NCBI GenBank assembly: GCA_021324155.1
Contig: JAJPJQ010000036.1
Span: 124,001 to 188,000 of the forward strand
Reading direction: 5' to 3'
Length of the DNA stretch: 64,000 nucleotides
Source: Pseudomonadota bacterium
GTDB lineage: Bacteria > Desulfobacterota > Binatia > UBA9968
Shown here: piece after piece, positions 31,319-48,613 of the stretch
Layout of the letters: every line of letters begins with the position of its first letter
Position numbering within the stretch: position 1 is the first letter of the stretch
The notes under the pieces: generated by a model
What the model saw: the letters and a program-made list of their open reading frames with translations, nothing else
What the model was told of the DNA's origin: nothing
The model's database searches: none
Made by a program: the position numbers and the translations under genes

Positions 31319-31957
31319 CTATCCGCCTCCCCTCTTCAGTATCTTGATGTTCTCCAGCCGCTCGATATGCCGCGCGAACGAATATTTGTTTTCTCGCGTG
31401 TCCTGCCCGGGTCCGCGATCTTCGCGGAAATTTTTCGTCTGCCGCACGTCGACGGGGTCGATTTTGGCCACAATCATCGAAGGTCCGTCCTCTTTGAGCG
31501 CCTTCTCCGCGGCCACTTTAAATTCCGCTTCGGTCCTGACGATGCTCGCCTTCTCGATGCCGCAGCCGCGGCCGACGGCCGCGAGATCCATGTTGCCGGC
31601 GGTCGCCGTCGGCATGCCGGGCTTCCCCTTGCCCGGCCCGCCGGATAAATAGTTGCCGTTGTCGAACACGATGATCGTGAGATTCTTCGGCCTCTCGTTG
31701 CCGACCGTGCCGAGACTGCAGAGGTTCAGGATCAGGTTGCCGTCGGAGTCGAGCGCGATCACTTTCCTGTGCGGCAGAGCGAGGGCGAGACCGAGCGCGG
31801 TCGGCGTGCACATTCCGAGGCTGACGGACGTGAGGCTCGTCGGACCGCGCCCCGTGCGCTCCCAAAGTGGCGTCGTGGAGCCGATCGGCGTCACGACCAG
31901 CATTTCATCGTTAACCATCTCGCCAAATATGCTGATCAAGTCGGCGCGGTTTACCAT
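31319..31957 (-). CDS. TPP-dependent decarboxylase-like beta subunit (sulfopyruvate decarboxylase ComE type), copy 2
   Basis: A 212-aa PP-domain subunit when started at the ATG at 31957, which has GGGGGAGG just upstream; a longer in-frame reading to 32020 lacks such support. It resembles the C-terminal half of phosphonopyruvate/sulfopyruvate decarboxylases: 'SLGMCTPTALGLALALPHRKVIALD', then the TPP/Mg motif 'DSDGNLILNLCSLGT...FDNGNYLSGG'. The usual GDGN begins with Ser here (SDGN), an uncommon change in the cofactor loop. It overlaps the alpha gene by 7 bases. Confidence 0.8.
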   Translation of the reverse strand: MVNRADLISIFGEMVNDEMLVVTPIGSTTPLWERTGRGPTSLTSVSLGMCTPTALGLALALPHRKVIALDSDGNLILNLCSLGTVGNERPKNLTIIVFDNGNYLSGGPGKGKPGMPTATAGNMDLAAVGRGCGIEKASIVRTEAEFKVAAEKALKEDGPSMIVAKIDPVDVRQTKNFREDRGPGQDTRENKYSFARHIERLENIKILKRGGG

Positions 31958-32445
31958 AAAGCCTCCCCCGTAACCAGGACCGCCACCGGCTTGAGCCAAG
32001 CCTCGGCGCAAATCTGACAATCCGCGATCGTCTGTTTGATTTCATCCTTCCGGCTGACGATTTTATATGGGATGTCCATCGAGTTGAGCATGGGCTCGAC
32101 GAATTGTTTGTAAATGCCCATCCAGCGCGGGTCGCCGAGGTCGCCGCGGTAAGGGATGAGAACCAGCAGCGGCACCTCCTTGAGATGCAGCCGTGCCAGC
32201 GAGAAAGTCGCGACCAGCAGGCCAGAGGTCGCGATGATCAGCGCGGGCTTCTTGCCGCCGAACCACGCCCCCATCGCGATCGAGGCGCCTTCGGCTTCGT
32301 TGCCCGCTCCCACGTACTTCAACGAGGGGTCCTGAAGAATCTGCTCGTACACCTCATGAAACTGCGAGTCGGGAAGTCCGACCGTGAAATTGATTCCGGC
32401 CTCTTTCAGGCCGTCAACGACGATGCGTGCTTTTTCTATCTCCAC
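31951..32445 (-). CDS. TPP-dependent decarboxylase-like alpha subunit (ComD type), copy 2
   Basis: A 164-aa Pyr-domain protein, the N-terminal half of a split TPP enzyme. 'LKEAGINFTVGLPDSQFHEVYE' opens it, and 'YVGAGNEAEGASIAMGAWFGGKKPALIIATSG' (about 44-75) contains the Glu that activates TPP (NEAEG). It pairs with the beta gene that follows and closely resembles the alpha gene at 33062. Sulfopyruvate decarboxylase (ComDE) is organised in just this way; phosphonopyruvate or another 2-oxo acid is equally possible as substrate. Confidence 0.82.
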   Translation of the reverse strand: MEIEKARIVVDGLKEAGINFTVGLPDSQFHEVYEQILQDPSLKYVGAGNEAEGASIAMGAWFGGKKPALIIATSGLLVATFSLARLHLKEVPLLVLIPYRGDLGDPRWMGIYKQFVEPMLNSMDIPYKIVSRKDEIKQTIADCQICAEAWLKPVAVLVTGEALW

Positions 32446-32459
32446 GAAATCTCCTTTTA

Positions 32460-33065
32460 CTAGATATGCGTGTACCTCGGCCGCAGAATCTGTTTTCCTT
32501 CCGTGCGCTCGATGTAGCGGGCGAAGCGGTATTTGCCCTCCTTGCCGTCGAGCGTTAGCGTGGGTAGTTTCTCCACGGTGCCTTTGTCCACCTTTGCCAC
32601 GATGAAGCGGTGCCCGGAACTCCGCAGCGCGTCGCCCGCGGCCTGCGCGAAATCGTCGAGCACCGTGACGACGCGCGCATTTTCGATTCCGGCGCCTTTC
32701 GCGATAAGCGCGAGATCGGCTTTGCCGGCGGTCGCCGAGGGCAGCCCGCCGCCGCCCTCATACGTCTCGTTATCCAGCACGATGTGGAGCACGTTTTTGA
32801 GCCCCTGGTTGGCCATGTCCGCGAGGCTCGCGAGATTGAGCAGCAGATTGCCGTCGCCGTCCAAAATGACGACGCGGCGGTGCGGCAGCGTGATCGCGAT
32901 GCCGAGCCCGACAGCGGCGCAAAGGCCGAGGTTCACCTGGAGCAGATTCGCTTCGCTCGGCCTCAACGCGTTCCATTCCCGCGAGATCGGCCCAACGTTC
33001 GCGACGACGATGTCGTCCGGACCGAGCATCGCGGCGAGCGACTTGAAGCAATCGAAGCGCTTCAT
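32460..33065 (-). CDS. TPP-dependent decarboxylase-like beta subunit (ComE type), copy 1
   Basis: A 201-aa PP-domain subunit with 'NLGLCAAVGLGIAITLPHRRVVILDGDGNLLLNLASL', an intact GDGN cofactor motif ending at 'VLDNETYEGGGG' (about 84-112). It overlaps the preceding alpha gene by 4 bases (ATGA). Together with 31319 it shows that the alpha-beta unit has been duplicated. The C-terminal tail 'GKYRFARYIERTEGKQILRP' is shared in spirit with copy 2 (FARHIERLENIKILKRG). Confidence 0.82.
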   Translation of the reverse strand: MKRFDCFKSLAAMLGPDDIVVANVGPISREWNALRPSEANLLQVNLGLCAAVGLGIAITLPHRRVVILDGDGNLLLNLASLADMANQGLKNVLHIVLDNETYEGGGGLPSATAGKADLALIAKGAGIENARVVTVLDDFAQAAGDALRSSGHRFIVAKVDKGTVEKLPTLTLDGKEGKYRFARYIERTEGKQILRPRYTHI

Positions 33066-33562
33066 TTGATCGTCTCTCCGGTGAGCAGTACGGCCACGGG
33101 GCGCTGCCAGCTGATCGTCGATCCTTGCGCGTCGACGATCGCCTTTGTAACTTCTTCCGTCTTGCTCACGACGACGTGCGGGATGTGAAGCACACCGAGC
33201 AGCGGCTCGGTGGTGTCTTTATACGGTCCCATGAGCCAGAACGCGTCGCCGATGTCGCCACGAAAAGGGATGAGCAAAAGCAGCGGTAGCCCCCACGCCA
33301 TGCAAAGACTCGTGAGCGGCCAAGCGGCAACGAGAAGACCCGACGTGGGCACGAGCAGCGCGGGCCGCTTGCCGCTGAGCCACGCGCCCGCGCAGACGCC
33401 GACGCCGATCGCCTCGTTGCTCACGGCACAGTAGCTGAAGCTCGGATCGCCCGTGACCTTCTTCTGCAGCCCGGAAAAGTCCGAATCCGGCAGCAGCGAA
33501 ATAAAGTCCACGCCCGATTGCTTGAGGCCTTGAAGAACTGCGTCTACGGCTTGCGATTCCAT
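33062..33562 (-). CDS. TPP-dependent decarboxylase-like alpha subunit (ComD type), copy 1
   Basis: A 166-aa Pyr-domain subunit: 'LKQSGVDFISLLPDSDFSGLQ', the activating Glu in 'CAVSNEAIGVGVCAGAWLSGKRPALLVPTSG' (about 45-76) and 'IPFRGDIGDAFWLMGPYKDTTEPLL'. First gene of the five-gene minus-strand operon alpha-beta-alpha-beta-binding protein, preceded by a good promoter. Confidence 0.82.
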   Translation of the reverse strand: MESQAVDAVLQGLKQSGVDFISLLPDSDFSGLQKKVTGDPSFSYCAVSNEAIGVGVCAGAWLSGKRPALLVPTSGLLVAAWPLTSLCMAWGLPLLLLIPFRGDIGDAFWLMGPYKDTTEPLLGVLHIPHVVVSKTEEVTKAIVDAQGSTISWQRPVAVLLTGETIK

Positions 33563-33629: not shown

Positions 33630-33740
33630 TCAAACGCACTCATAGATTTCGCGCATTGCAATCTATTTCCACGGCCGTCCCATTGCTCAACGCGAGTGAA
33701 ATGCGCCATACTCGCGCAGTCAATCACGAAAGGGAAAACG

Positions 33741-34382
33741 ATGAATCCAGATCAGATCGAGCTTAAAAAAACCGGCATCCTTTTTTTCGACATTCTGAAC
33801 GGCTACTACCATCAGGCGAGCGAGGCTAACCGGGCGCGCAAGAAGCCGATGGTCGAAGGCGCGGTGCGCCTGATGAAGGCGGGACGGCAGGCCGGCATCC
33901 CGATCTTCTTCGCCAAAGGCAACCACCGCGCCGACGGCGCGACGTCGGTCCCACTGCTGACCGATACCAGAATCGACCTCAAGCCCTGGTCCGATGGCGG
34001 TCCGGGAAAAGAGAAGTCGGTCGCCGTACACGGGGGCACCGGATCGGACGTGATCCCGGAGCTCGACCCCCGGCCCGACGATTATTACATTCTCAAATAC
34101 CGCTGGAGCGCTTTTCACCAGACCTATCTCGATCTCGCGCTGCGTGCGGCGCAGATCGATACATTGATCGTCTCGGGCGGCTCGACGGACGTCGGCCTCG
34201 CGGCGACGATTTTCTCCGCCCGCGATCTGGACTACAACCTGATTATCGCTCGCGACGCGTGCGCCACGATCCACGACCAGCGCGCCCACGACACGCTCAT
34301 GGACCTGATGTTTCCGCGCATGGGCCGCGTCCGGACGGTCGATCAAGTTGTGAAAATGATCGACCAAGCGCGCGGCAAATAA
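33741..34382 (+). CDS. Isochorismatase-fold hydrolase lacking the usual catalytic Cys
   Basis: A 213-aa protein when started at the ATG at 33741, which has AAAGGGAAA upstream and is where family similarity begins; the frame stays open to 33696. The family triad is Asp-Lys-Cys: Asp is in 'GILFFDILNGYY' (about 16) and Lys in 'YILKYRWSAFHQTYLD' (about 118), but the segment that should hold the nucleophile reads 'SGGSTDVGLAATIF', with Gly where cysteine hydrolases have TDVC. Isochorismatases (EntB, PhzD) also lack the Cys and cleave vinyl ethers, so ether or amide hydrolysis by another route is possible. It is co-directional with the next binding protein gene, 32 bases away. Confidence 0.75.
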   Translation: MNPDQIELKKTGILFFDILNGYYHQASEANRARKKPMVEGAVRLMKAGRQAGIPIFFAKGNHRADGATSVPLLTDTRIDLKPWSDGGPGKEKSVAVHGGTGSDVIPELDPRPDDYYILKYRWSAFHQTYLDLALRAAQIDTLIVSGGSTDVGLAATIFSARDLDYNLIIARDACATIHDQRAHDTLMDLMFPRMGRVRTVDQVVKMIDQARGK

Positions 34383-34414: not shown

Positions 34415-35482
34415 ATGAAGATCGGCGCGGGAATGTTCAAGCTGCTTCTCATCGCCATCGCCGCGCTCGCCGTGCCCTATCAGGCACGCGGCGACGTCGA
34501 GAGCGTGCTGAGCGAAATCAACCGCAAATCGGCCGAGGAGCGCACCAAAATTCTCGTAGACGGCGCCCGGAAAGAGGGCGTCGTCCAGTATTTCGGCTCT
34601 TCGGGCGCGAGCGACATTCAGGAGCTCATCAAGGGTTTCAATAAAAATTATCCATTTCTCGACGTGCGCTATGCAAGATTGGGCGGACCGGCGGTCGTCA
34701 GCAGAGTCACCACCGAATACCGCGCGGGAGTCTTCAACGTCGACCTGATTTCGATCCGGGGGACGCTGATCCCGGACCTGATGAGCAGTAAAGTCATCGC
34801 GAGATATCGCAGCCCCATGAGGGACTTTTTGCGCAAGGGCTATTTCGACGCGGAAGGTTACCTGTCGGGCTATTATGCGACGGGATACACGCTTCTCTAC
34901 AACACGAACAACGTCAAGCCCGCCGAGGTGCCCAAGTCTTACGACGACCTTCTGCAGCCCAGATGGAAGGGAAGGCTCGTGATGGACAGAGAAGAATATG
35001 ATTGGCTCGCCGCAATGATCGATTTGATAGGCGAGAGCAAGGCGACCGCTTTTTTCAAGCGGCTCGTGACGGAGCAGGGATTACAATTCAAGCGCGGCCA
35101 TTCGCTCATCACGCAGCTCGTGGCGGCCGGCGAGCACGACCTGCTGATCGACGGATACGTGCACAGCGCGAGCCAGTTCAAGACGAAAGGCGCGCCGGTC
35201 AATTTTGTTTTCATGAATCCCACGGCCGTAAAGCCGCCTAGCAGCGTCGCCATCGCGGCGCGCGCGCCGCATCCCTATGCCGCCGCCCTGCTCGCCGATT
35301 ATCATCTTTCGAAGGAGGCTCAGGAGATCATGGCACACAACCAGTTCTACTGGACCTCGCGGCGCGACGTGAAGTGGGCGACCGAGCCCGGGACCGAGCT
35401 GCACGTCGTCTCGCCGATGGAATGGGGCGGCGCGAAGTACAACAACGTGAGCGCGCTGTTCCGAAAGATCATCGGGGATTAG
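34415..35482 (+). CDS. Extracellular solute-binding protein, Fe3+/AfuA-like
   Basis: A 355-aa protein if started at the ATG at 34415, which has AGGAG upstream and a signal peptide (MKIGAGMFKLLLIAIAALAV, cleavage near QARG); a longer in-frame reading overlaps the previous gene. 'ARKEGVVQYFGSSGASDIQELIKGFNKNYPFLDV' and 'LLYNTNNVKPAEVPKSYDDLLQPRWKGRLVMDREEYDW' are typical of type 1/6 binding proteins of the iron and thiamin/polyamine groups. It converges with, and overlaps by 4 bases, a paralogue on the other strand. Confidence 0.83.
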   Translation: MKIGAGMFKLLLIAIAALAVPYQARGDVESVLSEINRKSAEERTKILVDGARKEGVVQYFGSSGASDIQELIKGFNKNYPFLDVRYARLGGPAVVSRVTTEYRAGVFNVDLISIRGTLIPDLMSSKVIARYRSPMRDFLRKGYFDAEGYLSGYYATGYTLLYNTNNVKPAEVPKSYDDLLQPRWKGRLVMDREEYDWLAAMIDLIGESKATAFFKRLVTEQGLQFKRGHSLITQLVAAGEHDLLIDGYVHSASQFKTKGAPVNFVFMNPTAVKPPSSVAIAARAPHPYAAALLADYHLSKEAQEIMAHNQFYWTSRRDVKWATEPGTELHVVSPMEWGGAKYNNVSALFRKIIGD

Positions 35483-36495
35483 TTTTTAAAATAAATCTCC
35501 CGAAATTCTTTGCTATAGCGGTTGAGCTCCTCCGCGACGCCGGAGTCGATGGCGAAGAGCTTGAGTTTTGCGGGATTCATGTCCGGCACCAGCGGCTCGA
35601 TGTCGAGCCGGCCGGAGATGCGATTCGCGCCGCGCAGGACCGTCTGCCCTTCCTTCGATAGAATGAAATCCATCAGCAGGCGGGCCGCGTTCGGGTTGTG
35701 CGCCTTGGCCGCCACGGCGACCGGCGATATCGTGACAAACACCGGATCCGCCGTCTTCGCCCAGTCGATCGGCGCGCCCGCTTTTTTCATCGACTCGGTG
35801 CGGTGGGCGTAGATGATGCCGAGCGGAAACTCGCCCGCGGCCATCAGCTGCGCGACCATGGTGTGGCCGCGATTCCAATGGATCTGCTGCTGCGCCAGGG
35901 CGTTGTGAAACTTCAGCGCCTTTTCTTTTCCCCAGGCCTTGATCGTGCCGGCGTACCACTCGTACTCTTCCTGGTCCATGCCGATTTTGCCTTTCCACTT
36001 AGGATTGACAAAATCGTCCCAATTCTTCGGCGCGTCCTTCGGCGAAACCATTTTCGTGTTGTATCCGAGGACGTAATAGATGTTGTAGAGCGTCGCCCAG
36101 TAGCCGTCCGGGTCTTTAAACTGGTTGGGAAAAGCCGCGAACTCGGGCGAGCGGTGCGCTTGCAGCAGCCCGCGCCGCTTGAGCGCGTTGATCGTCGTTA
36201 GGTTGACGACGTCCATCGCGCTTCGACCGGCGGTGTCTTCGGTGAGCACACGGTTTAACAGCTGCTCCGATCCCGCGCGGAGCAGCTCGCTTTTGATACC
36301 GGGATATTTTTGCTCGAAGCGGGCGAGCAGCGCGTTGCTGTCGTTGATGTTGAGCGACGTATACCAGACGACCTTGCCCTCTTTTTTGGCGGCCTCGATA
36401 AGGCCCGCTGGCTGTCCCCACGCCGAGGCGGCGAAAAAGATCGCGAACGGCAAGATCGATGCACATCGACGCAGCTGCCGGACTTTGATTTTCAT
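35479..36495 (-). CDS. Extracellular solute-binding protein, Fe3+/AfuA-like
   Basis: A 338-aa exported protein (signal peptide ends 'FAASAWGQ'). It shares with its convergent neighbour the pattern 'AAKKEGKVVWYTSL', 'NPKWKGKIGMDQEEYEWYAGTI' and 'RGHTMVAQLMAAGEF', so the two are paralogues facing each other. In this family a Tyr pair usually holds Fe3+; that cannot be confirmed here, and many members bind organic ligands. It follows the gentisate-dioxygenase-like gene by 19 bases on the same strand. Confidence 0.83.
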   Translation of the reverse strand: MKIKVRQLRRCASILPFAIFFAASAWGQPAGLIEAAKKEGKVVWYTSLNINDSNALLARFEQKYPGIKSELLRAGSEQLLNRVLTEDTAGRSAMDVVNLTTINALKRRGLLQAHRSPEFAAFPNQFKDPDGYWATLYNIYYVLGYNTKMVSPKDAPKNWDDFVNPKWKGKIGMDQEEYEWYAGTIKAWGKEKALKFHNALAQQQIHWNRGHTMVAQLMAAGEFPLGIIYAHRTESMKKAGAPIDWAKTADPVFVTISPVAVAAKAHNPNAARLLMDFILSKEGQTVLRGANRISGRLDIEPLVPDMNPAKLKLFAIDSGVAEELNRYSKEFREIYFKN

Positions 36496-36514: not shown

Positions 36515-37531
36515 TTATTCAGACCGAGGCTCTTCCCAATAGAAGCCGAGCGCTTCTTTTAGCGGACGGTCGTTGATCGAAAAAAGAATCGCCTCGTCGG
36601 CCGAAGCGTTCTCGTGGCCGTGCCACTGCCATGACGGCACGCTGAAGCAGTCGCCCGCGCTCCACTCGAGCACCCGATCGCCGACCTCGGTGCGGCCCGC
36701 CCCGCGAAAAGCGTGGTAGATCGTGTGGCTCGAGTGGCGGTGCTGTTTGGTTTTTTCGCGCGACCGCAGCATCTGGATCTCGCAGCCGATCGTGCGGAAC
36801 GTCGGCCCGCCGTTGCGCGGGTTCGCATAGCGCAGCAGCACGCCGTCGTAAGGATCGCCTTTCGTAGCGGCCAGCGCGGCCAGCGCGCGATAGGTTTCCT
36901 CCCACGGATATTTGAACGGCGGATCGGGAAAGTTGACGTTCTTTTCATAGGGCCGCGCGCGGCCGTAGCGGTGAATCGCGAGGTCCGGCGGCGCCTCGAC
37001 CGGCTGCTGCTTGCGGCCGAACATCTCGACGCGAATGACTTCGAGCGCTTTCACCAGCGGCCCGTCGTGGCCGTCGAGCCAGACGATATCCTCGGCGCTG
37101 CCGTTGTAGTGATCGTGCCAGGTCCAGTTGGGCGTGAGAATGAGATCGCCCGGCGACATGACGAAGCGCTCGCCCTCGACCGTCGTGTGCGCGCCGCCGC
37201 CGCGAACGACGAAGCGCAGCGCCGTCAGCGAATGGCGATGCGCCTTGGCGATCTCGGCGGGGCGCACGAGCTGCACCGACATGTGCACGGTCGGCGTCGC
37301 CCACCCCGCGCCGACCGGATTCGCGAGCCGGACGGTGCGGCGCTCCGACATCTCGAGGCTCACGAGCTCGCGCGCTTTGAGCAGCCCTTCATGAATGTGC
37401 TGCCATTTCCAGAGATGCGGCTCGAACGCGCTCTTAGGCTCGATGTCCTGCTCGAAGCCGGTGACGTTGCCGCTCCAGAAGCCCACCAGGTGGAGCGCCG
37501 CCAGCTCGCGATTGAGTTCGTCGAGAGTCAT
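36515..37531 (-). CDS. Gentisate 1,2-dioxygenase-like bicupin
   Basis: A 338-aa protein from the ATG at 37531, which has GGAGAAAAGCG in front; the frame continues to 37603 without support. Both cupin halves look metal-competent: the first has 'HRHSLTALRFVVRGGGAHTTV' and 'TPNWTWHDHYNG' (about 95-145), the second 'HRHSSHTIYHAFRGAGRTEVG' and 'PSWQWHGHENAS' (about 265-315). This matches gentisate or 1-hydroxy-2-naphthoate/salicylate ring-cleaving dioxygenases, Fe(II) enzymes that open hydroxylated aromatic acids. It is the last gene downstream of a binding protein and a diiron-like enzyme, suggesting aromatic acid use. Confidence 0.82.
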   Translation of the reverse strand: MTLDELNRELAALHLVGFWSGNVTGFEQDIEPKSAFEPHLWKWQHIHEGLLKARELVSLEMSERRTVRLANPVGAGWATPTVHMSVQLVRPAEIAKAHRHSLTALRFVVRGGGAHTTVEGERFVMSPGDLILTPNWTWHDHYNGSAEDIVWLDGHDGPLVKALEVIRVEMFGRKQQPVEAPPDLAIHRYGRARPYEKNVNFPDPPFKYPWEETYRALAALAATKGDPYDGVLLRYANPRNGGPTFRTIGCEIQMLRSREKTKQHRHSSHTIYHAFRGAGRTEVGDRVLEWSAGDCFSVPSWQWHGHENASADEAILFSINDRPLKEALGFYWEEPRSE

Positions 37532-37544
37532 CGCTTTTCTCCGG

Positions 37545-38525
37545 TCAGCGCAGCTTTTTGAAAAATCCTTCGCGTTCCAGCTCGTCGAGGAGGCTTTCGT
37601 CAAGGAACTGCTCGATATTGATGTCGCCCTTCGCCTCCCGATCGCGGTCGCCGACGAGCTCGAGAGCGTTGCGAATGCCGTCGCGGTCGATGCGCGGCGG
37701 GAACGAGAACCGCGGCGCGAAATAATCGTACGTCGCCTCGATGATTTTCGCGTCGGGCTGCTTGAGCCATTTGGTATACACCGCCATACCCTTCGCCTTG
37801 TCGGTCTTGAAGATGTGGACCGCCTCGCTGTAAGCGCGCACGAAGCGTTTCACCGTGTCGCGGTTTTTTTCCAGGAACGAGCGGCGCGTCGTCATGACGG
37901 TTTGGGGAAAACTCGCCTTCAGATCGCTGAGATTAGCGAGCACGGTCATGCCCATGCGCGCCGCCGCGATCGTCTCGGGCGGCGACAGCACGGTCGCGTC
38001 GAGCACGCGCGAAGATAATCCGGCGAGCCGCTCGGGCGCGCCGCCGGCGGCGAAGATCGTCATCGACGAGCGCGGCAGGTTCCATTCCTTGAGGGCGAGC
38101 GCGACGGCGAGGTCGGTCGAGCCGCCGAAGTTCAGGATGCCGATCTTCTTGCCGACCAGATCCGCGGGTTTGCGAATTTCTTTCTGCGCGATGAAGCTGA
38201 AGGGGAATTTATTGAGTGCGCCGCCGATGATAACGACGTCGCCGCCGCGGAGGCGGATCGGCAGCGACGCCGTGCCCGAGCCCATAGCGAAATCGATGCT
38301 CGAAGAGACGAGCGCGGCCATGCCGCGGGCGGCGCCGGTGATCAAGACCAGCTCGCCGTTGAGCCCGTGCTTCTTGAAGAGGCCGAGCTCGCGCGTCGCC
38401 CAGATCGGCCCCTGAAAGCCGGCAAAACCGTCATAAGCCGCGACCACCCGCTCGTCGGCGCGCGCGGCGCCGGGCGCGCCGATCAACAGCACGGCTGCGA
38501 AAACAAATAGCGCGCGAAGCTTCAT
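37545..38525 (-). CDS. ABC-type substrate-binding protein, NMT1/TauA-like
   Basis: A 326-aa secreted binding protein (signal peptide to about 'GAARAD', residue 24). 'GFAGFQGPIWATRELGLFKKHGL', 'RKPADLVGKKIGILNFGGSTDLAVALAL' (about 119-146) and 'ERLAGLSSRVLDATVLSPPE' are NMT1-type. Its start overlaps the stop of the candidate diiron enzyme by 4 bases and the dioxygenase-like gene follows 13 bases after its stop, so it is firmly part of a catabolic operon. Confidence 0.85.
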   Translation of the reverse strand: MKLRALFVFAAVLLIGAPGAARADERVVAAYDGFAGFQGPIWATRELGLFKKHGLNGELVLITGAARGMAALVSSSIDFAMGSGTASLPIRLRGGDVVIIGGALNKFPFSFIAQKEIRKPADLVGKKIGILNFGGSTDLAVALALKEWNLPRSSMTIFAAGGAPERLAGLSSRVLDATVLSPPETIAAARMGMTVLANLSDLKASFPQTVMTTRRSFLEKNRDTVKRFVRAYSEAVHIFKTDKAKGMAVYTKWLKQPDAKIIEATYDYFAPRFSFPPRIDRDGIRNALELVGDRDREAKGDINIEQFLDESLLDELEREGFFKKLR

Positions 38526-39274
38526 TTGCGCGCGGCCTCATTGAGCGACGCCTCGAGGATCGCTCCGTGGAGATCGATGGATGTGAGCGCGCAATATTCC
38601 AGCGTGTAGCCGGGCCGCACCTCCGCGCCCTCTTCCAATAGGCGCTGCAGCACCATTCGGCGGAAGCTTCCGTGGCCCATGACGCCTTCGTGCTCGCGCG
38701 TGTCGGCCTCCTCGTGGAGCGAAAAGTAGACCGCCTCAGCGGGCGTGAGGCCGTAATGTTTCGTGAGCGCCGTGTAGACTTCGCCGGCCCAGTGACCGAA
38801 GACTTCTTCGGTCGCGCCGGCGGAATAAAATTCCGCCACTGTCCCTTCCCACACGACCGCGCGGAACCAGTCGATCTTGGCGCGGAACTCGGCGAGCATC
38901 GGCGTGACGAAAATCTCGTCCTCGCCGATCCCGAGCGCCTTTCCGGTCTCGACCACGACGTGAATGTGGCCCGGCGGCTTGGGATGGATCAATTCGTCGG
39001 CGAGCTTCTCCGCCATCGCCGCCATCAAGTCGCGATGCTTGCGAAAAAAATGGATGTGCTTGTGATAAGAGGCGGCTTCCAGAGTGTTGATCTCGATCGT
39101 GTACGCGCCCCAGTTCTTGTAGAAGATGCGGAACGCTTCCTTCGGCAGCTTGCCGGCGGCGAGCGCGGTCATGAAACGCGAGGTCGTTACGCGCTCCTGC
39201 CAGCGCTGAGCGACCTTGCGATAAATTTCATCGACGTACGCCTTGGCCTCGGCGCCACCCATCTGTACGTTCAT
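38522..39274 (-). CDS. Heme-oxygenase-fold protein, candidate diiron oxygenase (TenA/PqqC superfamily)
   Basis: A 250-aa all-alpha protein of the PqqC/TenA/CADD superfamily. A set of possible metal ligands is present: Glu94-x2-His97 ('DELIHPKP'), Glu143/Glu148 ('WEGTVAEF') and His187-x3-Asp191-x3-His195 ('HEEADTREHEG'). This spacing resembles the E-x2-H / E / H-x3-D-x3-H pattern of heme-oxygenase-like diiron oxidases such as UndA; TenA thiaminases lack it. The gene is first of a run with a binding protein and a gentisate-dioxygenase-like enzyme. The chemistry is not known; oxygen-dependent decarboxylation or N-oxygenation are precedents in the superfamily. Confidence 0.7.
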   Translation of the reverse strand: MNVQMGGAEAKAYVDEIYRKVAQRWQERVTTSRFMTALAAGKLPKEAFRIFYKNWGAYTIEINTLEAASYHKHIHFFRKHRDLMAAMAEKLADELIHPKPPGHIHVVVETGKALGIGEDEIFVTPMLAEFRAKIDWFRAVVWEGTVAEFYSAGATEEVFGHWAGEVYTALTKHYGLTPAEAVYFSLHEEADTREHEGVMGHGSFRRMVLQRLLEEGAEVRPGYTLEYCALTSIDLHGAILEASLNEAARK

Positions 39275-39293: not shown

Positions 39294-40355
39294 CTAAAAT
39301 TTCAGCCGCACCTCGACGCCGCGCTTCGCGCACTCGGCGATGAACGTCGCGTGGATCTCCGGGTCCTGATCCTTATAGTCGATCTGCGTTCCGCCGGCCG
39401 ACTCGACCTCGAGCGTCTTCACCAGGTCTTCGACCTGATAGGTAAAGCCCCAGGGCTTGAGCGCGAGATAGCGCGCGGGCTCTTTGCCGGAATTAAAGTG
39501 CTGGTGAAACCATTTTGCCGGCGGCACGAAATAGCTCCCCGGCCGCCAGTCGATGCGCGTGCGCGGCTTGCCGGGCTCCCACAAGAGCGAATAGCCCTCG
39601 CCCGAAAGAATCAGGATGTGCGCCCCTGGTCCGTGCCAGTGCGCGCGCGGATACGTGCCGACGGGATACTCCTCGATATGCGCGCTGATCGTGTTGGCGG
39701 AGAAATGAAGCAGGATGCCGCGCGCGCCCTGCCCGCGCTTGCTGTGGTCCATCAGGCGAAAGCCCGGCACGTCGGCGATGAAGTTGGAATCCCAGGTGCG
39801 ATGCTCTTCGATCGCTTTGCCTTTGCCGTTGAAATATCCTTCCTCGCCGTTGAAGCGATCCGTAAAGCCGAAGGCGTTGTTGAAGATAAAATCGAGGTTG
39901 CGGAAGCGATTGATCATGACCGGCGCGTCGGTGAGCGCGACAAAACGCGCCGGCTCGTCGCCCTGCACATTGAAATGCTGCCGCCAGGTATTGAGCGGCG
40001 GCGAGAACATGCTCCCCTCCTGCCATTCGAACGTCTGCTTCCGGCCGCTCTCGTTCCACACGGTCGTCGCGCCGCGGCCTTTGACGACGTAGATGAGCTC
40101 TTCGAAGAGATAGTGCTCGGGTTTCGTCTGAGACTTTGCGGGAATTTCTACAGCATAGGAATCGCAGGCGCGACCCGCGCCGATGAGATTGATAAAAGCG
40201 CCGAGGACTCCCTTGCGCGACCACGGCTTAAGCTCAACGGTCCGCAAATCATCGATGGCGAGGCCGCGATAGATCGGCACGCCTTCGGTCTGCTGCCAAA
40301 TCTCGTACGGCGTCTTGTCGGTATAAGCCGCCCGCTTGGTAAGATCCACATTCAT
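39294..40355 (-). CDS. Bicupin protein of unknown substrate
   Basis: A 353-aa protein with two cupin domains separated by about 90 residues. The first ('YLFEELIYVVKGRGATTVW', about 82) has an incomplete His set. The second ('YPRAHWHGPGAHILILSGEGYSLLW', about 225) keeps a His-x-His pair and a later 'WFHQHFN'. Homologues annotated as 'cupin domain' often sit in catabolic islands with NMT1-type binding proteins. A GAGG ribosome site precedes the ATG by 7 bases. It is 19 bases upstream of the diiron-like gene and probably the first gene of that operon. Confidence 0.78.
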   Translation of the reverse strand: MNVDLTKRAAYTDKTPYEIWQQTEGVPIYRGLAIDDLRTVELKPWSRKGVLGAFINLIGAGRACDSYAVEIPAKSQTKPEHYLFEELIYVVKGRGATTVWNESGRKQTFEWQEGSMFSPPLNTWRQHFNVQGDEPARFVALTDAPVMINRFRNLDFIFNNAFGFTDRFNGEEGYFNGKGKAIEEHRTWDSNFIADVPGFRLMDHSKRGQGARGILLHFSANTISAHIEEYPVGTYPRAHWHGPGAHILILSGEGYSLLWEPGKPRTRIDWRPGSYFVPPAKWFHQHFNSGKEPARYLALKPWGFTYQVEDLVKTLEVESAGGTQIDYKDQDPEIHATFIAECAKRGVEVRLKF

Positions 40356-40442: not shown

Positions 40443-41312
40443 CTATGCGGTCAAAACCTCGAAGAACTCGGCCATGTGGTTGGTTATCAGCGAAAAATGG
40501 CCTTCCTTGGGATAGAAGCGCGGCCGGCATCGAAAAAGAGTCTCCGCGACGTGCCTTCCCATCGATGCGGGCACCGTCGCGTCCTCCTCGCCGTGCCACA
40601 GGTGGACTTCTTTGGAAATGTCTTCGAGGCGGAAAGCCCACGGCGACGCATATATCCGGCCTTCCCAGGCAGTACCGCGCGTCCCGGAGCGCACGGCTTC
40701 GAGTGTGCTGGCGACGAGGATATCTTTGAAGTCGGAGCCGAGCAGCGCCTGCCGGTCGGCCTGCGGCAGCGCGTCCGAGACGTGCTTCAAGTACCATTTG
40801 AAGTCGCGCTTGAGTTTCCACGCGGTGCGCGCGAACACAATGCGCAGGAGCCACGGCGCGGTGCGGCAGAGATAGAAAGTCCGCCGCGCGAGCGGCGACA
40901 TGGCGGCGCAGACCGACGGCGATTCCACGGGACCCAAGCCGCAGACGACGGCGACCGCGGTGAGCCGCTCCGGGATGCGCCGGGCGCACGCGAGCGCATA
41001 GGGTCCGCCGCCGGACACGCCGGCGACGGCGAAACGATCGAAGCCTAGAGCGTCGGCGAGTTCGCCGACATCGAGCGGCCAATCGAGAAGCGCGCGGTTG
41101 GCCTTGAAGTCCGAACCGCCCATACCAGGACGGTCGATGCCGATGAGACGCGCGTTGAAGCGCCGCGCCGTCGGCTCGGCGAGAGTAGCCTCCAGCCTGG
41201 AGCCCGGCCAGCCGTGAAAGTAAAAAATCGGCTTGCCGTGCGGCACGCCGTATTCGCAGAACGCGAGCCGCCGCCCGTCAGCGAGTGTAATCTGCCGCAA
41301 CTCCCCGACCAT
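40443..41312 (-). CDS. Alpha/beta hydrolase
   Basis: A 289-aa protein with the nucleophile elbow 'AVAGVSGGGPYALACA' (Ser about 100), an upstream oxyanion region 'IFYFHGWPGSRLEATLAE' and 'LIGIDRPGMGGSDFKANRALLDW', and the Asp/His pair toward the end ('HLWHGEEDATVPASMGRHV', 'FYPKEGHFSLI'). This complete triad fits an esterase or C-C bond hydrolase; 3-oxoadipate enol-lactonase-like and meta-cleavage hydrolases have the same shape. ATG at 41312 is preferred over a TTG three bases earlier. It is 87 bases upstream of the bicupin, probably in the same transcription direction and module. Confidence 0.82.
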   Translation of the reverse strand: MVGELRQITLADGRRLAFCEYGVPHGKPIFYFHGWPGSRLEATLAEPTARRFNARLIGIDRPGMGGSDFKANRALLDWPLDVGELADALGFDRFAVAGVSGGGPYALACARRIPERLTAVAVVCGLGPVESPSVCAAMSPLARRTFYLCRTAPWLLRIVFARTAWKLKRDFKWYLKHVSDALPQADRQALLGSDFKDILVASTLEAVRSGTRGTAWEGRIYASPWAFRLEDISKEVHLWHGEEDATVPASMGRHVAETLFRCRPRFYPKEGHFSLITNHMAEFFEVLTA

Positions 41313-41526
41313 CAAATGTCATTTAGCAGAAAATGAGGGGAGAGACGACGGCCGCACTCCCCGCTCTCACAGGAACCGACTCTGAATTTACTTTCCTAAT
41401 ACCGCGAGCGGGCAAGCTTTATTCGATGGGAACGGAATCGCGCAGCTCCGCATATTGAGCTGCAACAGTCACAACGGGGCTGAAGAGGGAAAGAAATCGG
41501 GAAAGGATCGAAGCGGGTCGATGAGG

Positions 41527-44451: not shown

Positions 44452-45249
44452 TCATGCAGGGACGCCATTTAGATTTTTGTTCAAAATTTCTTGTCGAAAC
44501 CGCCAATATCGAGTCCGCGGATTCATCTTGCCCTCAACGGCAGCCGCCGCGGCATAAGATGGTCCTGCGTCGATAGGCAAATACCGCCAGCGCTCGGCCT
44601 CTTTAGGTTCCTGACTAACATTCAGAAGCGCCGGCGGATCCGAAGGCGCGACGGAAACGCTAAAATCCTTTAGGCCGAAAGACAATCCTTCCCCTCGCGC
44701 TTTGATGTACGCTTCCTTTCGAGTCCAGCAATCGAAGAATGCTTTGCGCCTGTGGTGCGGCGGCAAAGCCATGAGCGCCGCAACTTCCTGGACGGAAAAA
44801 AATCGCGAAGCGAGGGATTCAACCTCCAGCTCACGATCCAGACATTCCACATCGACGCCGATCCGATGTCCTAAAGTAAATGCGTAAAGGGCTAGACCGC
44901 CCGAATGTGACAGGTTGAAATCGAAATGATCTTCAAGCCCCCTGACAAACGGTTTTCCGTTCGGGTTATAGGTAAAGGAGATATCCGCAGGTGGTTTCCG
45001 AAGATAACCTCCTAGCAAAATTCTCAGCAGCCCGCGTCCTGCAATGAAACGATTCCGGTCGCGCTCGAAATGGAAGCGCGCGGCGCGCTCCCGTTCGTCA
45101 TTTGTAAGGATTCCATGGAGCAGCTCGACATCTGCCGCCGCTATGTCAATTGACGCCAGCCATAAGTGAACTTCCTCGGTCGAAGCTTCGACCGATATCG
45201 GCGCCGGCTGCCAATTCGGGATTACTGCCTGATATTTCGTTGGGCACAT
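44452..45249 (-). CDS. Sfp-type 4'-phosphopantetheinyl transferase, copy A
   Basis: A 265-aa enzyme attaching phosphopantetheine to carrier proteins. Sfp-type motifs: 'GRGLLRILLGGYL', 'GKPFVRGLEDHFDFNLSHSGGLALYAFT', the Mg-binding 'GVDVECLD' (about 125) and 'FFDCWTRKEAYIKARGEGLSFGLKDF' (WTxKEAxxK, about 172-190). It lies downstream of the UDP-sugar dehydrogenase and is separated from it by 97 bases. The carrier protein at 62437 is an obvious candidate partner. The ribosome site is not evident. A paralogue lies at 47783. Confidence 0.92.
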   Translation of the reverse strand: MCPTKYQAVIPNWQPAPISVEASTEEVHLWLASIDIAAADVELLHGILTNDERERAARFHFERDRNRFIAGRGLLRILLGGYLRKPPADISFTYNPNGKPFVRGLEDHFDFNLSHSGGLALYAFTLGHRIGVDVECLDRELEVESLASRFFSVQEVAALMALPPHHRRKAFFDCWTRKEAYIKARGEGLSFGLKDFSVSVAPSDPPALLNVSQEPKEAERWRYLPIDAGPSYAAAAAVEGKMNPRTRYWRFRQEILNKNLNGVPA

Positions 45250-47782: not shown

Positions 47783-48613
47783 CTATCGAGCCCTGACGAT
47801 TGGCACGTTCAACGGCGTATTTCTTCCAATGGTTTTGCCCGTTGTGCGCACGGGAAGTTCCTGCATGTTCCCCGTCAATTGCCAACATCGAATTTTCAGG
47901 TCCTTGCCTTCGACGGCGAGTGCTGCGGCGTAACGAGAATCCGGATTCAGGTCGAGTAGGGACCACCGCGAGACTTCATCGGGCTCTGTCGTCACTTCGA
48001 GAAGCGCCGCTGATGCGTCTGGCGCTACCGAAACACTGAAGCTATTACGCATGACCGTCAATCCGTGGCCACGCCCCTTGAGGTATGCCTCCTTGCGCGT
48101 CCAGCACGTGAAAAACGCCTTTGATCGGATTTCCTCGGGCAGCGATTTGAGCAAAGCTCTTTCTCGCTGAGAAAAGAACAGCTCGGCGACGACCTCCGGA
48201 ACGCGAACATCTCGGATACTTTCAATATCGATTCCCACCTCACGACCAAGAGTGACCGCGAAAAGAGCGATTCCTTCTGAATGCGACAAGTTGAAGCGCA
48301 GTGCGTGACCGTCCCGGACGGCCAGATAGGGCTTGCCATTCGTTCCATAGTTGAAGCAAATGCCGTCGGGACTTCGGTTCAGATATCTGCCCACAAGAAT
48401 CCGAAGAAGGGCTCTTGTCGCGATAAAGTCCTGCCTTTCACGGTGGAGGCTAAGCCGCTTCGCCCGCTGCCGCTCCTCCTCGGAAAGAGCCTGGCTGAGA
48501 CTTTGTACCCATTCGGGAGCATTGTTTAAAAATACCCTCCAAACATGCACTTCGTCCTGGCGAGCCTCAATGGAGTCAGGCGGCATTTTCCACAGCTGAT
48601 CAATATCGATCAT
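47783..48613 (-). CDS. Sfp-type 4'-phosphopantetheinyl transferase, copy B
   Basis: A 276-aa paralogue of the enzyme at 44452, alike over most of its length: 'ALLRILVGRYLNRSP', 'GKPYLAVRDGHALRFNLSHSEG', Mg site 'GIDIESIRDV' (about 126) and 'FFTCWTRKEAYLKGRGHGL' (about 172-190). The catalytic residues are intact, so both copies could be active. It follows a small membrane protein gene by 32 bases. Duplicate transferases flanking the two nucleotide-sugar genes suggest either a local duplication or different carrier specificities. Confidence 0.92.
   Translation of the reverse strand: MIDIDQLWKMPPDSIEARQDEVHVWRVFLNNAPEWVQSLSQALSEEERQRAKRLSLHRERQDFIATRALLRILVGRYLNRSPDGICFNYGTNGKPYLAVRDGHALRFNLSHSEGIALFAVTLGREVGIDIESIRDVRVPEVVAELFFSQRERALLKSLPEEIRSKAFFTCWTRKEAYLKGRGHGLTVMRNSFSVSVAPDASAALLEVTTEPDEVSRWSLLDLNPDSRYAAALAVEGKDLKIRCWQLTGNMQELPVRTTGKTIGRNTPLNVPIVRAR

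What the first reader, a model, noticed from the sequence alone, without database searches (positions are those of the whole stretch)
38522..39274. Candidate heme-oxygenase-fold diiron enzyme in a catabolic operon
The 250-aa TenA/PqqC-like protein has Glu94-x2-His97, Glu143/148 and His187-x3-Asp191-x3-His195, a ligand pattern like that of heme-oxygenase-like diiron oxidases, a family whose members do unusual oxidative decarboxylation and N-oxygenation. It overlaps a binding protein gene and lies between two bicupins, which points to a new oxygen-dependent degradation step.
Basis: partly seen in the sequence, partly recalled or inferred. Interest (0 to 1): 0.62.

Follow-up and report, generated by a model that had tools for sequence, protein, structure and literature searches.

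The report
Two-metal oxygenase for aromatic-acid breakdown
This gene belongs to a bacterial enzyme family predicted to use two metal ions and oxygen; its metal-binding helix is split by an inserted loop and it sits among genes for breaking down aromatic acids, a role not yet demonstrated for this type of enzyme in the literature I could search.

Summary
The gene is real: 250 aa, minus strand 39274-38522, in a tight operon between two bicupins, overlapping an NMT1 binding-protein gene by 4 bp. AlphaFold2 (pLDDT 95.7) gives the heme-oxygenase fold, closest to the dimetal pABA synthase CtCADD (Z 24.5, 1.9 A over 212 residues). H97 and E143 vary. H195 is an extra conserved His in an inserted loop that splits the third metal helix. 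PqqC and pABA-synthase readings fail at key residues; TenA is not supported. The family is confined to one order of uncultured 'Deltaproteobacteria'-labelled bacteria; this genome has nine copies among at least 27 HDO-fold proteins, plus 41 UbiD decarboxylases. Of 65 copies outside the QueF-linked and FAD-operon branches, 56 lie within four genes of UbiD, cupin, DHDPS-type aldolase or related catabolic genes, against 0 of 10 QueF-linked paralogs. Best reading: a dimetal O2-using enzyme in aromatic-acid catabolism; metal, substrate and reaction remain unproven. New variant of a known kind.

The parts
38522..39274 (-). HDO-fold protein, 250 aa (the finding)
   Evidence: ORF; Pfam Haem_oxygenas_2 1.6e-9; AF2 pLDDT 95.7; CtCADD Z 24.5
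38993..38995 (-). codon of E94, aligned with CADD ligand E81
   Evidence: 77/77 conserved
38966..38968 (-). codon of H103, aligned with CADD ligand H88
   Evidence: 77/77 conserved
38807..38809 (-). codon of E156, aligned with CADD ligand E142
   Evidence: 77/77 conserved
38714..38716 (-). codon of H187, aligned with CADD ligand H174
   Evidence: 77/77 conserved
38702..38704 (-). codon of D191, aligned with CADD ligand D178
   Evidence: 77/77 conserved
38672..38674 (-). codon of H201, homolog of the canonical third His ligand (CADD H181)
   Evidence: 76/77 conserved; register test; A3 alignment; helix resumes here in both models
38675..38701 (-). inserted loop (residues 192-200) that splits alpha-3; holds the extra conserved His H195 (38690-38692)
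   Evidence: H195 in 73/77
38591..38617 (-). family signature loop R220-x-G-[YWF]-x-x-[ED]-Y-C228, candidate substrate-carboxylate site
   Evidence: Y227 and C228 77/77, R220 R/K; used as scan pattern
39294..40355 (-). bicupin directly upstream (19-nt gap), conserved in close orthologs
   Evidence: Cupin_2 8.5e-12
37545..38525 (-). NMT1 solute-binding protein, 4-bp overlap
   Evidence: NMT1 7.1e-18
36515..37603 (-). gentisate 1,2-dioxygenase-like bicupin; likely true start ATG near 37531
   Evidence: TIGR02272 280.6 bits against cut-off 442.1
35479..36495 (-). second extracellular solute-binding protein of the operon
   Evidence: SBP_bac_8 8.7e-22
40443..41315 (-). alpha/beta hydrolase, probable first gene of the operon
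   Evidence: Abhydrolase_1 1.1e-14

Best explanation
[quoted passage not shown] Two metals, probably iron, are held by E94, H103, E156, H187, D191 and H201; H195 in the loop is a candidate extra ligand or acid/base. By analogy with UndA, AetD, PolF and MboA, a carboxylate-bearing substrate would complete the site, O2 would bind as a peroxo-dimetal species, and the substrate would be oxidised (hydroxylation, desaturation or oxidative C-C cleavage). The step belongs to the breakdown of an aromatic acid or its ring-cleavage product, beside cupin ring cleavage, UbiD decarboxylation and DHDPS-type aldol cleavage. Shown: fold, ligand conservation, split helix, gene context. Inferred: metal binding, O2 use, substrate class. 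Unknown: the exact reaction.
For: AF2 model and CtCADD as closest solved fold. All six 3H/3C positions filled and conserved in 76-77 of 77 relatives. Invariant columns across 21 HDO proteins at 13-42% identity to P0001 are essentially the ligands plus one Gly. A profile containing the family finds pABA synthases (7e-40), BesC, FlcD, HrmI, UndA, MboA and SznF in the PDB. Context: 56 of 65 loci have aromatic-catabolism markers within four genes, UbiD adjacent in 19; QueF-linked paralogs 0 of 10. Rieske oxygenases and FAA hydrolase in some loci.
Against: No metal, O2 or substrate data. The split alpha-3 is atypical and could alter or lose one metal. In the own genome alone the UbiD link of the nine copies is weak (2 of 9 within 5 kb, p 0.13). 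Orthologs are not independent, so context p-values are overstated. Characterised HDOs are biosynthetic.
Confidence: 0.6

Rival explanations
1. A metal-free PqqC- or TenA-like enzyme (cofactor-free oxidase or thiaminase-type hydrolase) that salvages a heterocycle brought in by the NMT1/THI5-like binding protein.
For: Pfam TENA_THI-4 hit at 3e-6; PqqC is the second-best fold (Z 22.4); NMT1 gene overlaps it.
Against: PqqC lacks equivalents of E94, H103 and H187 in the alignment, whereas all are invariant here. Neither PqqC nor TenA curated models match P0001 at E up to 1. NMT1 proteins are everywhere in this genome.
Confidence: 0.07
2. A self-sacrificing p-aminobenzoate synthase like CADD and NePabS.
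For: CADD is the closest solved fold and sequence; TIGR04305 is the best curated model, though at 26.7 bits against a cut-off of 200; Y183 matches CADD Y170.
Against: The consumed Tyr27 and Lys152 align with M35 and V166, never Tyr and Lys in the family. Up to ten copies per genome in catabolic contexts.
Confidence: 0.04
3. A dimetal HDO, but making a small molecule (cofactor, redox metabolite or signal) rather than degrading one; the catabolic neighbours are incidental because such genes are abundant in this genome.
For: Characterised HDOs are biosynthetic (PMC13108848, PMC13185094). Other branches of this same family sit beside QueF or in a B12-radical-SAM/SDR/FAD-oxidase/methyltransferase operon. 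Own-genome UbiD link of the nine copies is weak.
Against: 56 of 65 loci across relatives carry aromatic-acid genes within four genes, against 0 of 10 QueF-linked paralogs; conserved adjacency in several separate clades.
Confidence: 0.2
4. An accessory oxidase that matures a partner enzyme, for example oxidising the prenylated flavin cofactor of UbiD decarboxylases.
For: UbiD directly adjacent in 19 of 65 loci in several clades; the active UbiD cofactor needs oxidation (own knowledge).
Against: Most loci, including the window, have no UbiD within four genes; 41 UbiD against nine copies of this family.
Confidence: 0.03

Closest known systems
CADD / NePabS self-sacrificing p-aminobenzoate synthases (NCBIfam TIGR04305)
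   Same: Closest fold (Z 24.5, 1.9 A) and sequence; ligand positions; alpha-1 broken by a loop between Glu and His; Tyr183 = CADD Tyr170
   Different: Sacrificial Tyr27 and Lys152 absent; alpha-3 split by an insertion with an extra His; extra R-x-G-Y-x-x-E-Y-C loop; multi-copy in catabolic loci
UndA, BesC, AetD, PolF, MboA (3H/3C HDOs that oxidise carboxylic or amino acids)
   Same: Same fold and 3H/3C ligand types; likely carboxylate substrate
   Different: Continuous H-x3-[D/E]-x2-4-H motif; they act in biosynthesis on fatty acids, amino acids or peptides; sequence too distant to transfer a reaction
SznF / RohS (3H/4C N-oxygenases)
   Same: Fold; alpha-1 interrupted by a loop (SznF); E61 (68/77) lies on the auxiliary helix where these have a seventh ligand, equivalence not established
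   Different: Split alpha-3; aromatic-catabolism context
PqqC and TenA
   Same: Overall fold; weak Pfam TENA_THI-4 hit
   Different: PqqC lacks the equivalents of E94, H103 and H187; no curated PqqC or TenA model matches P0001

Membership tests
[quoted passage not shown]
   AF2 pLDDT 95.7; CtCADD Z 24.5, HrmI 21.1, UndA 20.5
[quoted passage not shown]
   By alignment: E94, H103, E156, H187, D191, H201, each in 76-77 of 77. Distances not measured
[quoted passage not shown]
   H187-x3-D191-x9-H201; helix broken at 193-200. This spacing describes the known members compared here; it is not used by the review as a requirement, so I file the protein as a variant
[quoted passage not shown]
   Needs protein
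CADD-type pABA synthase | Sacrificial Tyr27 and Lys152 | tested here: not met
   M35 and V166 at these positions; never Tyr and Lys in 77 relatives
CADD-type pABA synthase | TIGR04305 above curated cut-off | tested here: not met
   26.7 bits against 200
PqqC | TIGR02111 curated model | tested here: not met
   No hit for P0001 at E up to 1; the divergent relative L023 reaches 29.8 bits against 240
TenA thiaminase II | Catalytic Cys/Glu/Tyr active site | not tested
   No residue-level alignment to TenA was made; only the lack of a curated TenA model hit
3H/4C HDO subgroup (SznF, RohS) | Seventh ligand, Glu on auxiliary helix alpha-2 | tested here: inconclusive
   E61 is conserved (68/77) on that helix, but equivalence to SznF E189 was not established

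The most novel reading that the evidence does not exclude
A catabolic branch of the HDO superfamily: a dimetal oxygenase with a split metal helix carrying a fourth histidine that performs a so far undescribed oxidative step on aromatic acids, expanded up to ten-fold in one uncultured bacterial order and paired with UbiD decarboxylases, ring-cleavage cupins and DHDPS-type aldolases.
Probability: 0.4. Interest if true: 0.72.

Novelty: new variant of a known kind. Interest (0 to 1): 0.52.

Why it matters
About a dozen HDOs have known functions, described as biosynthetic (PMC13108848, PMC13185094). A branch used for degradation would widen what the fold does and add a possible O2-dependent step to aromatic-acid breakdown in soil and groundwater bacteria known only from metagenomes. 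The split alpha-3 helix with a second histidine is a natural variant of the flexible part of the site thought to control metal loading and O2 gating in HDOs, so it makes that question testable.

Tried and rejected
NMT1 binding protein as a functional clue: dropped, more than 150 copies in the genome. UbiD link within the own genome only: weak for the nine copies, strong across relatives. Plasmid search: no match. Direct measurement of side-chain distances: not possible, the tools give no model coordinates. E61 as a seventh ligand: could not be settled. No paper linking HDOs with UbiD or aromatic degradation was found in the open-access library, which misses most subscription journals. The automatic D-to-His spacing counts printed are confounded by other motif matches and are not used. 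The first gene-calling script picked antisense frames and was replaced.

Full report
1. The observation. The 250-aa frame at 38522-39274 is on the minus strand. It is real: nine family copies occur in the genome, the other eight at 32-70% identity; 77 family genes were collected from the own genome and relatives. It lies in a co-directional block with small gaps: alpha/beta hydrolase 40443-41315, bicupin 39294-40355 (19-nt gap to this gene), this gene, NMT1 binding protein 37545-38525 (4-bp overlap), gentisate-dioxygenase-like bicupin 36515-37603 (likely ATG near 37531), solute-binding protein 35479-36495.

2. Fold. AlphaFold2 on a 34-sequence family alignment gave pLDDT 95.7 and pTM 0.91. The best solved match is the dimetal p-aminobenzoate synthase CtCADD (Foldseek E 2.8e-8; VIA-align Z 24.5, rmsd 1.9 A, 212 residues), then PqqC (Z 22.4), 3dde (21.4), HrmI (21.1) and UndA (20.5). 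A shared fold alone shows no function.

3. Metal site. Profile alignments place E94, H103, E156, H187 and D191 on CADD E81, H88, E142, H174 and D178 (CADD ligand numbers partly from own knowledge). All five are invariant in 77 of 77 family genes; H97 is H in 41, E143 is E or D, E148 is E in 74. As in CADD and SznF (PMC11611611), helix alpha-1 is broken by a loop between the Glu and the His (model helices 81-95 and 103-113). Three His and three carboxylates of this kind make up the 3H/3C set of most HDOs (PMC13108848).

4. The third histidine. AetD has H-x3-E-x2-H, MboA H-x3-D-x4-H (PMC13185094). Of the 18 other HDO proteins of this genome, all have the His pair with x6 between, with D, N or E in the middle. 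The window family has two conserved histidines after D191: H195 and H201. When the helix that follows the canonical third His is scored against the family, the register starting at H201 beats H195 by about 11 to 24 units in all 32 members that have both, without counting the His column. MAFFT, run on 21 HDO proteins, independently puts H201 in the canonical column: the invariant columns are E94, H103, G115, E157 (next to E156, gap-ambiguous), H187 and H201, with D191 at 90% or more. The divergent member L023 has no insertion and only the H201 equivalent. The two AlphaFold2 models agree: in P0001 alpha-3 is helix 182-192, loop 193-200, helix from 201; in the QueF-linked paralog L005 the loop is 188-203 and the helix resumes exactly at the equivalent His204. 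Whether H195 also binds metal is open. Convergence of the side chains rests on the alignment and the 1.9 A superposition, not on measured distances, because no coordinates were available.

5. What it is not. PqqC, in a profile alignment with this family and its neighbours, lacks the equivalents of E94, H103 and H187, and neither the PqqC nor the TenA curated model matches P0001. The tyrosine and lysine that CADD consumes (PMC13108848) align with M35 and V166, which are never Tyr and Lys in the family.

6. Distribution. A scan of about 85,000 genomes with the signature R-[PAE]-G-[YWF]-[STG]-[LMY]-E-Y-C found 27 relatives, nearly all in metagenome assemblies labelled Deltaproteobacteria; this is a lower bound, because only one pattern was scanned. 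In 148 genomes of the class the family occurs in 30, all in one order: in the window's own bacterial family with 1 to 10 copies, in a second one usually with one. This genome has at least 27 HDO-fold proteins (26 by PF14518 plus one family copy), 41 UbiD and more than 150 NMT1 proteins.

7. Context across relatives. Of 77 family genes, ten sit divergently beside QueF near DnaB, with no aromatic-degradation marker within four genes. Two sit in an operon with B12-radical-SAM, SDR and FAD-oxidase genes. Of the other 65, 56 have at least one of UbiD, bicupin, DHDPS-family aldolase, Rieske oxygenase, FAA hydrolase, dienelactone hydrolase or amidohydrolase within four genes; UbiD is near in 26 and adjacent in 19, DHDPS near in 21, a cupin near in 21. 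Against the QueF-linked paralogs Fisher's p is 1e-7, and UbiD adjacency is far above chance if the genome has about 4700 genes (an assumption), but orthologs are counted separately, so both overstate independence. Markers were assigned by best BLAST hit to sequences typed with Pfam. Close orthologs of the window gene (L082, L085, L086, L089) keep a bicupin directly upstream and have Rieske or DHDPS-family genes nearby. Within the own genome alone the link of the nine copies to UbiD is not significant.

8. How it most likely works. Fold, ligand conservation and context are shown; metal, O2 and substrate are inferred. In UndA, AetD, PolF and MboA a substrate carboxylate binds Fe1 and completes the site. 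The invariant R131 and the loop with R/K220, Y227 and C228 are candidates for holding such a carboxylate; Y183 matches CADD Tyr170, a redox-active residue. I propose a dimetal oxygenase or oxidase acting on an aromatic acid or on a carboxylated ring-cleavage product, with products passed to cupin, UbiD or aldolase steps. I cannot say which reaction.

9. Novelty. Characterised HDOs are described as biosynthetic (PMC13108848, PMC13185094), with one linked to desiccation tolerance (PMC13232832). No paper tying HDOs to UbiD or aromatic degradation was found in the open-access library. The split alpha-3 was not met in the other HDO sequences examined here. I rate it a new variant of a known kind.

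Noticed in passing
Whole genome G000 (window = C27:124001-188000): At least 27 HDO-fold proteins, 41 UbiD and more than 150 NMT1 binding proteins in 4.8 Mb: an extreme expansion; among 14 control genomes only two have any PF14518 protein. Eighteen of these HDO proteins, some in tandem (L063), have the canonical motif and were not studied further.
   Followed up: partly
L049, L051-L054, L022 (holds L008), L027 (holds L015): Another branch of the family sits in a conserved operon B12-radical-SAM / SDR / FAD oxidase / HDO / O-methyltransferase, often followed by DHH phosphoesterase, RtcB and an ornithine-cyclodeaminase-like gene. Looks biosynthetic; product unknown.
   Followed up: partly
L019 (holds L005), L025 (holds L013), L036-L046: A third branch lies divergently beside QueF, near DnaB, PEPCK and a Na/H exchanger, with a longer inserted loop (D191-equivalent to His 16 residues), and may be the ancestral single-copy form.
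   Followed up: partly
L050:9001-9678: One QueF-linked member has an in-frame deletion that removes the loop and both histidines: assembly error or loss of a metal site.
   Followed up: no
window 31319-33562: Two tandem pairs of sulfopyruvate-decarboxylase-like thiamine-diphosphate alpha/beta genes, with an isochorismatase-type hydrolase divergently at 33696-34382.
   Followed up: no
window 44452-45249 and 47783-48613: Two 4'-phosphopantetheinyl transferase paralogs flank a UDP-sugar dehydrogenase and an NAD-dependent epimerase.
   Followed up: no
L048, L055: Close family members (66% and 62% identity) on contigs labelled Acidobacteria and Verrucomicrobia, with assembly names of the same style as several Deltaproteobacteria loci: misbinning or gene transfer, not resolved.
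   Followed up: no
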